Part shown: piece by piece, positions 24,082 through 30,628 of the stretch
How the letters are laid out: the number at the start of each line of letters is the position of its first letter
Numbering within the stretch: the stretch's first letter is position 1
NCBI GenBank assembly: GCA_026399075.1
Contig: JAPLRR010000077.1
Location: 111,555-175,554 of the forward strand
DNA from: Methylococcales bacterium
GTDB taxonomy: Bacteria; Pseudomonadota; Gammaproteobacteria; Methylococcales; Methylomonadaceae
DNA length: 64,000 bases
Direction of reading: 5' to 3'
Notes under the pieces: model-generated
What the model saw: the letters and a program-made list of their open reading frames with translations, nothing else
What the model was told of the DNA's origin: nothing
Databases searched by the model: none
Program-made: the position numbers and the translations under genes

Positions 24082-25365
24082 TTATTGGCACGTCACTTTG
24101 GGCAAGTCCCGCCAACTCGTTGTGTACTGCGGTGAAACAGCGCCTTGCGACGAGGTGGATGCTACCAAGCCGGTGGCTGCTAGTGTGATGGCGTGGGGGA
24201 AGCGGCGGTTGACCTGATCCATGGCCGACATTAATGCGGTGTTGTTAACACGGTTTGGGTCTGCCCCAAACGGCGCGAATAAGTCCAATTGCTGTTTTTC
24301 GGTGATGGGCTGGAAGTGGTCCAGTTGGATGCCGGCTTTTTGGTAGTGGTAACCGGGTTTAAAAATCGCGGCCAGCAGTTGTCGGGTGACGGTAAGCAAA
24401 TGGCGGGTATCTTGGCTAGGCAGGGCCAGGTGTTGGCTGGCGGCGCGTTCGTAATGCGGGGCATCGGGTTTGAACGGGCTAGTGCGGATAAATACCGTTA
24501 CCCGGTGGCTTAAGGCTTGTTGATGCCGGAGTTTTTCAGCGGCGCGGGCACAAAACCGCGCCAAGGCCCGCATCAAGCCCTCGAAATCAGTTATTGGCTG
24601 TTTAAAACTGCGGGAGCAAATAATCTGCTGTTTGTCAGGCGCAATCTCATCTAGCGCCAAACAAGATGTACCGTTTAATTCCATGACGGTGCGCGCCAAC
24701 ACCACAGTAAACAGCGTGTGGATACGTTTTTCGGGTTGTCTGGCCAAGTCCCATGCGCTATGTATTCCTAGTTTGTCGAGCTTTGCGCCTGTGCGCCTGC
24801 CGATTCCCCAGACTTCGCCGACGGGCACAATGCGCAGTAGTTTTTCGCGGCGTTCAGGATCTGACAAATCCACCACACCTTGGGTTTTTGGCCATTTTTT
24901 GGCAGCAAAATTTGCCAGTTTGGCCAGTGTTTTGGTGGGGCCCATGCCTACGCAGACAGGAATGCCCGTGGCCCTGAACACCGCTTTTTTGATCAACAGG
25001 CCGTAAGCAATGGGGTCTGATGGGCAAACGCCAGTCAAATCCAAAAACGCTTCGTCAATGGAATACACTTCCATGCTGGGGGCAAATGCTTCCAAGGTTG
25101 CCATCACCCGTGCTGACATATTGGCATACAGCGTGTAATTGGATGAAAACAGGTGGATTTTGTGCCGATTAACCAGCTGTTGCACTTGAAACAGCGGCAC
25201 GCCCATTTTAATGCCCAAATCTTTGACCTCTTTGCTGCGGGCAACAATACAGCCATCGTTATTGCTCAACACCGCCACGGGCTTGCCGATTAAATCAGGC
25301 CGAAAAACGCGTTCGCAGCTCACATAAAAATTATTGCAATCGACTAAGGCGATACGTGTCTGCAT
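24082..25365 (-). CDS. umuC: DNA polymerase V catalytic subunit UmuC
   Basis: Y-family translesion polymerase. I start it at the ATG giving MQTRIALVDCNNFYVSCERVF (427 residues), since the track ORF adds 12 residues that overlap umuD in another frame. Catalytic acids are in ALVDCNNFYVSCE and YSIDEAFLDLTG; VARSKEVKDLGIKMGVP, VGMGPTKTLAKLANF and VWGIGRRTGAKLDKLGI complete the UmuC pattern. Its ATG overlaps the umuD stop (TAATG). The last 60 residues carry a QLDLFAPFGAD motif resembling a beta-clamp binding site. Confidence 0.95.
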   Translation of the reverse strand: MQTRIALVDCNNFYVSCERVFRPDLIGKPVAVLSNNDGCIVARSKEVKDLGIKMGVPLFQVQQLVNRHKIHLFSSNYTLYANMSARVMATLEAFAPSMEVYSIDEAFLDLTGVCPSDPIAYGLLIKKAVFRATGIPVCVGMGPTKTLAKLANFAAKKWPKTQGVVDLSDPERREKLLRIVPVGEVWGIGRRTGAKLDKLGIHSAWDLARQPEKRIHTLFTVVLARTVMELNGTSCLALDEIAPDKQQIICSRSFKQPITDFEGLMRALARFCARAAEKLRHQQALSHRVTVFIRTSPFKPDAPHYERAASQHLALPSQDTRHLLTVTRQLLAAIFKPGYHYQKAGIQLDHFQPITEKQQLDLFAPFGADPNRVNNTALMSAMDQVNRRFPHAITLAATGLVASTSSQGAVSPQYTTSWRDLPKVTCQ

Positions 25366-25793
25366 TACAGGGCATGGATGACGTTGGTCACTACGCCCCA
25401 AATCACCATTTCCAAGTCTTCATGGACGGCAATATCCGGGTAGGCCGGGTTTTCTGCCCGCAACTGCCATTGCCCGTTGCCGCGCGCCAAGCGTTTTACG
25501 GTCAGCTCGCCGTTTAACGCGCAAATGACGATCTTTCCGGCTACTGGCTCCAAGGAGCGGTCTACGACCAAAATGTCATCGGGGTGTATGCCTGCACCCA
25601 GCATGGATTCGCCTTGGGCGCGGACAAAAAAGGTTGCGGCGGGTTTTTGCACCAGCAATTCGTTTAAATCCAAGGTTTTTTCAACATAATCATCGGCAGG
25701 TGAAGGGAAACCAGCCGCCACTTTGCCGCTAAACAAGGGCAGGGGCAGACGCAGGGGGCGTGGGTTAGGCAATAGCAGGGTAAAGGAAGTCAT
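25365..25793 (-). CDS. umuD: SOS mutagenesis protein UmuD
   Basis: LexA-like self-cleaving subunit of polymerase V, 142 residues. The probable cleavage site is Ala27-Gly28 (GKVAAGFPSP), the nucleophile Ser63 is in GESMLGAG and the general base Lys100 is in NGELTVKRLARG, with spacing equal to E. coli UmuD. It is transcribed divergently from lexA across 125 bases. The promoter reads TTGTAA, 17 bases, TAGAAT, and its -35 lies inside a large palindrome, so LexA control is very likely. Confidence 0.94.
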   Translation of the reverse strand: MTSFTLLLPNPRPLRLPLPLFSGKVAAGFPSPADDYVEKTLDLNELLVQKPAATFFVRAQGESMLGAGIHPDDILVVDRSLEPVAGKIVICALNGELTVKRLARGNGQWQLRAENPAYPDIAVHEDLEMVIWGVVTNVIHAL

Positions 25794-25858
25794 GGATAAA
25801 GCGCGCCTGAAGAAGGGGAAATAAGTTTTCTGTTTTCTTTTTGTTCTCTTTTTCTTGC

Positions 25859-25887
25859 ATTCTAATTTATTTTTGGTAAGCTTACAA
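25859..25887 (-). promoter_or_regulatory. umuDC promoter
   Basis: On the minus strand the -35 TTGTAA (25882-25887) and the -10 TAGAAT (25859-25864) are 17 bases apart. The -35 overlaps the palindromic operator candidate. Confidence 0.6.
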
Positions 25888-25891
25888 AAAA
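25870..25891. promoter_or_regulatory. palindromic operator between lexA and umuDC, candidate LexA box
   Basis: A 22-base palindrome with one mismatched pair, centred on GTAAGCTTAC (25876-25885) with T-rich and A-rich flanks. It is the only strong palindrome in the 125-base divergent region and overlaps the umuD -35. It does not match the CTGT-N8-ACAG box of E. coli. Confidence 0.6.
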
Positions 25892-25918: not shown

Positions 25919-26545
25919 ATGGATGTATTAACCCGCCGACAACGGGAAATTTTTAATTTTCTACGTGACAACACGGGCGGGTTTGCCTACCCGCCGAGTT
26001 TGGATGAACTGTGTGCGGCGCTGGGTATGGCCTCGCGCGGCTCATTGTACAAGCACATCATGGCCTTGATTGAGGCGGGTTTGGTGGAGCCTTTTACCGG
26101 CAATAAACAAGGCGGTGTCCGCCTTTGCGCAGCGGCGCAGATTGACGGGGACAACCCGGAACAAGGTTTGCCCTTTATCGGCATTATTGCCGCAGGCAAG
26201 CCGATTGAAGCCTTGGCAACCACGGACTATATGACTGTGCCGGATGCCCTAAAAACCAACAAGCCCTGCTATGTGTTGCAGGTTAAAGGTGACTCAATGA
26301 TAGATGCTGGCATTTTTGACGGTGACTGGGTGGTCATTGAACAACGTGATTATGCCAACAACGGTGAGATAGTGGTCGCCTTGATAGAAGATGCCGAAGC
26401 AACACTGAAATATATTGAGCAAAGCGCAACACAAGTGTTGTTGCTGCCAGCCAATACCACTATGACCGCGCTATCCTACCGCCCTGAGCAAGTTAAAATA
26501 CAAGGCGTGTTGGTTGGGCAAATGCGCAGTTATCGTTCCCATTAA
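25919..26545 (+). CDS. lexA: LexA-type SOS repressor (variant DNA-binding domain)
   Basis: Repressor of 208 residues. The N-terminal winged helix has the LexA start LTRRQREIFNFLRDN and a recognition region SLDELCAALGMASRGSLYKHIMALIEAG, which differs from the E. coli type. Self-cleavage parts are intact: Ala92-Gly93 (IAAGKPIEA), Ser126 in KGDSMIDAG and Lys163 in EATLKYIE. It is divergent from umuDC and is followed by a small ORF and a DnaQ-Cho nuclease, an SOS-like set. It may be a second, locus-specific LexA, because the chromosome is not fully visible here. Confidence 0.9.
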   Translation: MDVLTRRQREIFNFLRDNTGGFAYPPSLDELCAALGMASRGSLYKHIMALIEAGLVEPFTGNKQGGVRLCAAAQIDGDNPEQGLPFIGIIAAGKPIEALATTDYMTVPDALKTNKPCYVLQVKGDSMIDAGIFDGDWVVIEQRDYANNGEIVVALIEDAEATLKYIEQSATQVLLLPANTTMTALSYRPEQVKIQGVLVGQMRSYRSH

Positions 26546-26575: not shown

Positions 26576-26710
26576 ATGCAACGTAAAATCCACATGCACG
26601 ACCAAGTGTTCAATAAAGTTGAGGACATCATGAACCACTACAAAAGAAACCCATTGGAAGATTTGGTGCGGATATTTAAACAATTGATGAAACAGGCATC
26701 GGTCATTTGA
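26576..26710 (+). CDS. 44-aa basic helical protein in the lexA operon
   Basis: A small ORF missing from the ORF track. Its ATG at 26576 has an excellent ribosome site (GAGGAG, 7 bases before). The product (MQRKIHMHDQ..., ending KQASVI) is 44 residues, basic, with no Cys and probably helical. It begins 30 bases after lexA and lies upstream of the DnaQ-Cho fusion gene, so it is probably SOS-induced with them. The sequence is not recognised. Confidence 0.6.
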   Translation: MQRKIHMHDQVFNKVEDIMNHYKRNPLEDLVRIFKQLMKQASVI

Positions 26711-26789: not shown

Positions 26790-28154
26790 TTGCCACGGTT
26801 GGCGTTTGTTGACCTGGAAACCACAGGTGCCAACGCGACAATAGACCGCATCACTGAAATCGGCGTGGTGCTGGTGGACGGGCAGGGCGTACAGGAGTGG
26901 AGCCAGCTAATCCAGCCACAAACACGTATTCCGGCCTTCATAGAGCAACTGACGGGTATCAGTAACGCAATGGTGGCTGATGCACCGTGTTTTGAACACA
27001 TTGCCGCAGAACTGGACACGCTGCTGCAAGGCTGTTTGTTTATTGCCCACAATGCCCGTTTTGATTATGGCTTCTTAAAAAATGAATTTAAACGCGTAGG
27101 GATTAACTTTAGGCCGACGGTTTTGTGTACGGTCAAATTATCCAGGGCTTTGTTTCCTGAATATCGGCACCACAACCTTGATAGTCTGATTACCCGCCAT
27201 GGCTTGATAGTGACAGCCCGACACCGGGCGTTGGGGGATGCCCAGCTGATACATCAGTTTTGGCAACAGCTCCATGTGACATTCGATGCTACCGTAATCG
27301 CTGAAACCGTACAAAAGCTGATAGGGCGCTCTAGCTTGCCTTCCCATATCGACCGCTCCCTGATAGACGATTTGCCGGAATCCCCCGGCGTGTATTTGTT
27401 CTACGGCGAAAACGGTTTGCCGCTGTATATCGGCAAAAGCATCAATATCCGGCAACGGGTCTTGGCGCATTTTTCAGCTGACCACAGCCACGGTAAAGAA
27501 ATGAGCTTGTCACAGCAACTGCGCCGCATCGACTGGATAGAAACAGCCGGTGAATTGGGTGCATTGTTGATGGAGGCAAAGCTGATAAAAACCTTGCAAC
27601 CCACCCATAACCACCGTTTACGGCGTAAAAATGCCTTGTGTGCCTGGCAATTGCAACAGCAAGCCGAACAATTGCGCCCGGTATTGGTGTGGGCTGATGA
27701 ATTGGGTTTTGGGGTGCAAGACAACTTATACGGGCTTTACCCCAACCAACGTGATGCACAAAAGGCGTTGCACAGCATTGCCGAACAAAACCAATTGTGC
27801 CTAGGGGCCTTGGGTCTGGAAAAGACCGCTAAAGGGCGGCCTTGTTTTGCCCGGCAATTAAAAAAATGCCACGGTGCTTGTGTTGGTTTGGAAGCGCCAC
27901 TGGCCCATTCCGCGCGTTTGTTGGTGGCAATGGACAAGCTCAAAATCGCCACCTGGCCGTATCAAGGCGCGGTGGGCATACAAGAAGGCAGTGATTTACA
28001 CATTATCGACCATTGGTGTTACTTGGGCACGGCCAAACAGGAGGCAGACGTGCACGATGTGATGGCTGCCAGCCGCCCAAGTTTTGATAAGGACACCTAC
28101 GCCATACTGAGCAAGGCGTTAAAGAAACTGGGTCGTGTGGTGACGATTGCTTAG
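26790..28154 (+). CDS. DnaQ-like 3'-5' exonuclease fused to Cho/UvrC-type GIY-YIG nuclease
   Basis: Two nucleases in one 454-residue chain. The N-terminal DEDDh exonuclease has FVDLETTGANATIDRITEIGVV (Exo I), AHNARFDYGFLKNEF (Exo II) and RHRALGDAQLIHQF (Exo III His/Asp). The second half begins SPGVYLFYGENGLPLYIGKSINIRQRVLAHF, a GIY-YIG domain as in UvrC and Cho, and includes EAKLIKTLQPTHN. A CARQ-like Cys segment (CFARQLKKCHGACVG) follows. Such fusions are known and are annotated as excinuclease Cho in several bacteria. The TTG start directly gives the exonuclease strand. Position after lexA suggests SOS-regulated repair. Confidence 0.9.
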   Translation: MPRLAFVDLETTGANATIDRITEIGVVLVDGQGVQEWSQLIQPQTRIPAFIEQLTGISNAMVADAPCFEHIAAELDTLLQGCLFIAHNARFDYGFLKNEFKRVGINFRPTVLCTVKLSRALFPEYRHHNLDSLITRHGLIVTARHRALGDAQLIHQFWQQLHVTFDATVIAETVQKLIGRSSLPSHIDRSLIDDLPESPGVYLFYGENGLPLYIGKSINIRQRVLAHFSADHSHGKEMSLSQQLRRIDWIETAGELGALLMEAKLIKTLQPTHNHRLRRKNALCAWQLQQQAEQLRPVLVWADELGFGVQDNLYGLYPNQRDAQKALHSIAEQNQLCLGALGLEKTAKGRPCFARQLKKCHGACVGLEAPLAHSARLLVAMDKLKIATWPYQGAVGIQEGSDLHIIDHWCYLGTAKQEADVHDVMAASRPSFDKDTYAILSKALKKLGRVVTIA

Positions 28155-30577: not shown

Positions 30578-30628
30578 AGAGACGCGATAAATCGCGTCTC
30601 TACAAGAGGCGGCGGGCATAATCCCGCC
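30578..30628. repeat. two tandem hairpins after the ART-like gene
   Basis: AGAGACGCGAT pairs with ATCGCGTCTCT (30578-30601, 2-nt loop), then GGCGGG pairs with CCCGCC (30611-30628). The first resembles the dispersed GTAGAGACGCGAT type of intergenic repeat. They may also act as a terminator between the convergent ART-like and typA genes. Confidence 0.6.

What the first reader, a model, noticed from the sequence alone, without database searches (positions are those of the whole stretch)
25870..25891. Non-canonical LexA operator candidate GTAAGCTTAC
A 22-base palindrome with one mismatched pair lies between divergent lexA and umuDC and covers the umuD -35 element. The lexA helix-turn-helix differs from the E. 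coli type, and no CTGT-N8-ACAG site is present. This suggests a LexA with a different DNA code.
Basis: partly seen in the sequence, partly recalled or inferred. Interest (0 to 1): 0.62.

Follow-up and report, generated by a model that had tools for sequence, protein, structure and literature searches.

The report
LexA operator beside the flagged palindrome
This methane-oxidising bacterium's DNA-damage repressor LexA does appear to use a DNA code different from E. coli's, but its likely binding site is the neighbouring GTTTTCTTTTTGTTCTC repeat (a code known from Alphaproteobacteria), and the flagged palindrome GTAAGCTTAC is most likely a chance feature of two overlapping promoters.

Summary
The palindrome is real (25870-25891, 10 of 11 pairs), covers a umuD -35 candidate, and no CTGT-N8-ACAG box is present. 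It is probably not the LexA operator. Of 26 homologous lexA promoters only the window's has GTAAGCTTAC; most relatives keep TAAGAT, the lexA -10. The four other genomic copies lie inside unrelated ORFs. None of 24 further operator-type sites in relatives has it.

What is conserved lies 21 bp away: GTTTTCTTTTTGTTCTC (25832-25848), an 11-bp direct repeat of the GTTC-N7-GTTC class known for Alphaproteobacteria. GTTY-N7-GTTC occurs upstream of lexA in 25/26 Methylobacter-clade, 11/11 more distant relatives and 40/44 alphaproteobacterial loci, but in 0/6 canonical LexA loci of the same order (which have CTGT-N8-ACAG in 4/6). A LexA tree groups the window protein with these, away from canonical LexA.

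In this genome the motif occurs at no other promoter found, so LexA probably controls one divergent locus: umuDC on one side, lexA, a conserved 44-aa ORF and exonuclease-Cho on the other. recA lacks the motif. A GTTC-type LexA mini-regulon in Methylococcales is a modest novelty; binding is untested.

The parts
25832..25848 (+). proposed LexA operator GTTTTCTTTTTGTTCTC (GTTY-N7-GTTC class, 11-bp direct repeat)
   Evidence: Mean information 1.85 bits/column against 1.31 for the palindrome and 0.74 for the whole alignment of 26 lexA promoters; same element at umuDC, exo-cho and other promoters of relatives; GTTY-N7-GTTC in 25/26 lexA promoters of the clade.
25827..25853 (+). 11-bp tandem repeat of unit TTTTTGTTCTC, 2.5 copies, containing the operator
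   Evidence: Tandem Repeats Finder; up to four 11-bp units in relatives L010 and L022.
25870..25891 (.). the reported near-palindrome; most likely overlapping promoter elements, not an operator
25855..25860 (+). lexA -35 candidate TTGCAT
   Evidence: Conserved as TTGCAT or a close variant, 16-17 bp before TAAGAT, in most relatives; assigned by conservation, weak match to consensus.
25877..25882 (+). lexA -10 candidate TAAGCT (TAAGAT in most relatives), the core of the palindrome
   Evidence: Alignment of 26 promoters.
25859..25887 (-). umuD promoter candidate TTGTAA-N17-TAGAAT
   Evidence: Consensus scan of the intergenic region; the two hexamers are largely conserved in the closest relatives.
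25919..26545 (+). lexA, GTTC-type; putative cleavage site A-A-G-K, catalytic S (GDSM) and K (ATLKY) present
   Evidence: TIGR00498 159 bits, cut-off 111; Pfam LexA_DNA_bind and Peptidase_S24; only full-length LexA of the genome. Residues read from the translation.
26576..26710 (+). conserved 44-aa ORF of unknown function directly after lexA
   Evidence: Same ORF after lexA in nearly all Methylobacter-clade loci, and downstream of the operator in some loci without an intact lexA; no Pfam or NCBIfam match.
26790..28154 (+). DnaQ-like exonuclease / Cho (UvrC-like GIY-YIG) fusion
   Evidence: NF007833 excinuclease Cho 285 bits plus RNase_T domain; has its own operator copy in relatives.
25365..25793 (-). 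umuD
   Evidence: NF007621 166 bits, cut-off 110.
24082..25368 (-). umuC (translesion DNA polymerase V subunit); ORF called from 25401, protein similarity starts near 25352
   Evidence: NF002955 476 bits, cut-off 431.

Best explanation
The LexA encoded here binds the direct repeat GTTTTCTTTTTGTTCTC at 25832-25848, a GTTC-N7-GTTC-class operator, and from it represses two divergent promoters: umuDC to the left (the operator lies just downstream of the predicted umuD start site, so a bound LexA would block initiation or escape) and lexA - 44-aa ORF - exonuclease-Cho to the right (the operator lies just upstream of the lexA -35). DNA damage, through RecA filament-stimulated LexA self-cleavage, would release both. 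The flagged palindrome is where the lexA -10 and the umuD -35 overlap and is symmetric mostly by accident in this one genome. Shown: the sequence conservation, its linkage to LexA type, its position and its scarcity elsewhere in the genome. Inferred: binding, cleavage and repression.
For: Alignment of 26 lexA-umuD intergenic regions: operator 1.85 bits/column, palindrome 1.31, whole alignment 0.74; palindrome pairs fall from 10/11 in the window to 3-9 in relatives. GTTY-N7-GTTC upstream of lexA in 25/26, 11/11 and 40/44 (Methylobacter clade, more distant Methylococcales-type, Alphaproteobacteria) against 0/6 for canonical LexA of the same order, which have CTGT-N8-ACAG in 4/6; chance of an exact site in shuffled upstreams 0.6%. 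Motif search in 61 genomes: 85 hits against 8 for the reversed control; about 15 of the hits are a coding match at the recA start. The other near-exact sites checked lie before umuDC, exo-cho or the lexA-ORF cassette. LexA tree: the window clade and alphaproteobacterial LexAs are separated from canonical LexAs (95/86).
Against: No binding data. The first half-site in the window is GTTT, not GTTC. The sequence is T-rich, so part of the conservation could reflect DNA bending or promoter upstream elements. Relatives share ancestry, so the 26 promoters are not independent; the alphaproteobacterial, canonical and exo-cho comparisons are the independent part. Four alphaproteobacterial and one clade promoter miss the pattern.
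Confidence: 0.88

Rival explanations
1. The palindrome GTAAGCTTAC with its T/A arms is the LexA operator.
For: Near-perfect 22-bp symmetry in the right place; the plasmid copy in Methylobacter sp. YRD-M1 keeps 9 of 11 pairs.
Against: 1 of 26 homologous promoters has it; absent from 24 further operator-type sites; the four other genomic copies are inside unrelated ORFs; its positions are explained by the lexA -10 and umuD -35.
Confidence: 0.04
2. Both elements matter: LexA binds the GTTC repeat as primary site and the promoter-overlapping near-palindrome as a weak second site that strengthens repression in this strain.
For: More distant relatives carry two GTTC-N7-GTTC sites around the lexA promoter, so two-site repression exists in the family.
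Against: The palindrome has no GTTC half-site; it is not conserved.
Confidence: 0.06
3. The T-rich 11-bp repeat is a promoter upstream element or intrinsic bend and LexA binds somewhere else.
For: The repeat is pyrimidine-rich and phased by 11 bp, next to the lexA -35.
Against: It matches the GTTC-N7-GTTC code found before most alphaproteobacterial lexA genes, tracks LexA type, and recurs at umuDC and exo-cho.
Confidence: 0.06

Closest known systems
Alphaproteobacterial LexA with its GTTC-N7-GTTC direct-repeat operator
   Same: Operator class and 11-bp half-site spacing; operator upstream of lexA; nearest LexA outside the gammaproteobacterial clade by similarity and tree; motif as reported in PMC8565304 and PMC3323433.
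   Different: The window LexA is in Methylococcales (Gammaproteobacteria), 35-39% identical; recognition region ASRGSLYKH against [AK]SKSGIHRL; half-site GTTT/GTTC in a T-rich 11-bp array; no recA site found.
Canonical gamma/betaproteobacterial LexA, CTGT-N8-ACAG
   Same: Same protein family and presumed RecA-triggered self-cleavage.
   Different: Different helix-turn-helix and no CTGT-N8-ACAG; other families of the same order have the canonical pair.
Bdellovibrio LexA, TTAC-N3-GTAA palindrome
   Same: Superficial likeness in letters to GTAA-GC-TTAC (motif from PMC3323433, PMC8565304).
   Different: Half-sites in the opposite order, other spacing; no conservation here.
Secondary lexA2-type regulators tied to mutagenesis cassettes (imuA-imuB-dnaE2 type)
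   Same: LexA next to, and apparently dedicated to, an error-prone polymerase cassette (comparison from general knowledge).
   Different: Here it is the only LexA found in the genome and is linked to umuDC and exo-cho.

Membership tests
LexA (TIGR00498) | full-length match above curated cut-off, with LexA_DNA_bind and Peptidase_S24 domains | tested here: met
   159.1 bits, cut-off 110.95; both Pfam domains over cut-off.
LexA (TIGR00498) | Ala-Gly cleavage site and Ser/Lys catalytic pair | tested here: met
   IIAAGKP, GDSM and TLKY read in the translation; activity not tested.
GTTC-N7-GTTC LexA/operator type (alphaproteobacterial kind) | GTTC-N7-GTTC upstream of lexA | tested here: met
   Window: GTTT-N7-GTTC, one mismatch. 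GTTY-N7-GTTC in 25/26 clade loci; exact form in 6/26 of the clade, 10/11 more distant relatives and 40/44 Alphaproteobacteria.
GTTC-N7-GTTC LexA/operator type (alphaproteobacterial kind) | LexA groups with alphaproteobacterial LexA rather than canonical LexA | tested here: met
   Split supported 95/86 in the tree, drawn with a midpoint root and long branches; sister group to, not inside, the alphaproteobacterial clade.
GTTC-N7-GTTC LexA/operator type (alphaproteobacterial kind) | LexA binds the site in vitro | not testable with these tools
   Needs gel shift.
Canonical LexA regulon | CTGT-N8-ACAG upstream of lexA | tested here: not met
   Absent even with 2 mismatches.
Typical SOS regulon | recA carries a LexA site | tested here: not met
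   No GTTC-type site matched in the genome outside the window locus except within ORFs or at control level; recA upstream read directly.

The most novel reading that the evidence does not exclude
In Methylobacter and relatives the SOS response has shrunk to a mobile, self-contained mutagenesis cassette: a GTTC-type LexA, sister to the alphaproteobacterial form, that regulates only itself, a new 44-aa protein, exonuclease-Cho and umuDC through tandem 11-bp half-sites, while recA and the rest of repair are outside its control. The 44-aa protein would be a new SOS-induced factor.
Probability: 0.45. Interest if true: 0.6.

Novelty: new variant of a known kind. Interest (0 to 1): 0.42.

Why it matters
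It would add a Gammaproteobacteria order to the map of LexA DNA codes, where two LexA types with different operators (CTGT-N8-ACAG and GTTC-N7-GTTC) are used by different families of one order and, in one genome (G044), occur together. That makes the switch between codes directly testable. It also corrects the operator position, so that mutational or reporter work on this promoter would target the right bases.

Tried and rejected
Palindrome as operator: rejected on conservation and genome distribution. Matches GCTTTCTTTTTGTTCTC at recA of relatives: rejected as operators, because they overlap the first codons of recA on the opposite strand (DENKKKA-type coding). Further sites in the own genome by a relaxed motif: 7 hits against 11 control hits, the examined ones inside ORFs except L223, for which no ORF was found by my criteria. 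A second LexA in the genome: none found (assembly 93% complete). Papers on LexA in Methylococcales: one unrelated hit.

Full report
Observation. The 22-bp near-palindrome is present as described, between umuD (minus) and lexA (plus). It covers a umuD -35 candidate (TTGTAA 25882-25887, N17, TAGAAT 25859-25864) and no CTGT-N8-ACAG is present. A near-palindrome of this quality is expected about once or twice per 64 kb of this composition; P is about 0.015 within this intergenic region.

Setting. The genome is 4.08 Mb in 111 contigs, 93% complete, with one full-length LexA. Nearest LexAs are from Methylobacter, Crenothrix and other Methylococcales, including a plasmid copy in Methylobacter sp. YRD-M1 (71.5% identity) and three copies in the Methylobacter psychrophilus genome. 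The identity of the host as a Methylobacter-like methanotroph is an inference from these.

The palindrome fails. The genome has five GTAAGCTTAC sites; the other four lie inside ORFs (SbmA/LolB-like, a specificity-subunit-like and another protein by eye). In 26 aligned lexA promoters only the window has it; the homologous positions read mostly GCTAAGATAAC, i.e. the lexA -10 (TAAGAT) 16-17 bp after TTGCAT, and pairing falls to 3-9 of 11. The outer T and A runs are kept in close relatives only, where they are also part of the umuD -35.

What is conserved. GTTYTCTTTTTGTTCTC, in the window 25832-25848, has 1.85 bits per column against 1.31 for the palindrome. It is part of an 11-bp tandem repeat, which has up to four units in relatives. 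In 61 genomes the motif gives 85 hits against 8 for the reversed control; about 15 of the 85 are a recA coding match. At the other sites examined the neighbours are umuD or umuC, the exonuclease-Cho fusion, or the 44-aa ORF without an intact lexA next to it; one site (L135) lies between umuD and an SRAP-like protein. None of these 24 promoters has the palindrome. A few, such as L138 and L137, are weaker or coding matches.

Link to LexA type. More distant relatives (55-61% identity) show unmistakable GTTC-N7-GTTC sites. Outside the Methylococcales-type clade the next LexAs are alphaproteobacterial. GTTY-N7-GTTC lies upstream of lexA in 25/26 clade loci, 11/11 more distant loci and 40/44 alphaproteobacterial loci, but 0/6 canonical LexA loci of the same order, which have CTGT-N8-ACAG in 4/6. 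Shuffled upstream regions give exact sites in 0.6%. A tree of 88 LexAs separates canonical LexAs from all GTTC-type ones with 95/86 support; the window clade is beside, not inside, the alphaproteobacterial clade, so vertical or ancient lateral origin is open; long branches limit the inference. The alphaproteobacterial motif is established in the literature (PMC8565304, PMC3323433). I found no paper on LexA operators in Methylococcales in the held library, which does not include most subscription journals.

Regulon. In the window genome the motif with up to 2 mismatches occurs here and once inside an ORF; a relaxed search is at control level. The recA upstream region has no such site on reading. 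So the regulon appears to be this one divergent locus: umuDC, and lexA - 44-aa ORF - exo-cho. Whether exo-cho is co-transcribed with lexA is an inference from order and spacing; in relatives exo-cho has its own operator.

Mechanism, with status. Sequence element and its association with LexA type: shown. Operator position relative to promoters: from predicted promoters. Binding, repression, cleavage-triggered release: inferred from the LexA family.

Noticed in passing
26576-26710: A 44-aa ORF (MQRKIHMHDQVFNKVEDIMNHYKRNPLEDLVRIFKQLMKQASVI) follows lexA in nearly all relatives and sits behind the same operator even where no intact lexA precedes it (L133, L227, L230); no Pfam or NCBIfam family.
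   Followed up: partly
26790-28154: DnaQ-like exonuclease fused to a Cho/UvrC-like nuclease, in the lexA operon here and alone behind its own operator in relatives (L121, L122, L124-L126, L129, L130).
   Followed up: partly
L058; L149, L150, L152: The lexA-umuDC cassette is on a 62-kb plasmid of Methylobacter sp. YRD-M1 and in three copies in Methylobacter psychrophilus Z-0021, suggesting mobility.
   Followed up: partly
L045 and L054 (genome G044): One genome of the same order carries both a GTTC-type and a canonical-type LexA.
   Followed up: no
L224 (genome G012): A near-complete genome of the same genus has umuD copies but no full-length LexA match; one umuD lies near an SRAP-like gene and integrase-like genes. 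How umuDC is regulated there is open.
   Followed up: no
L135: GTTCTCTACTTGTTCTC lies between divergent umuD and an SRAP (SOS response-associated peptidase)-like gene.
   Followed up: no
30579-30600: The only other 22-bp near-palindrome (at least 10 of 11 pairs) of the window.
   Followed up: no
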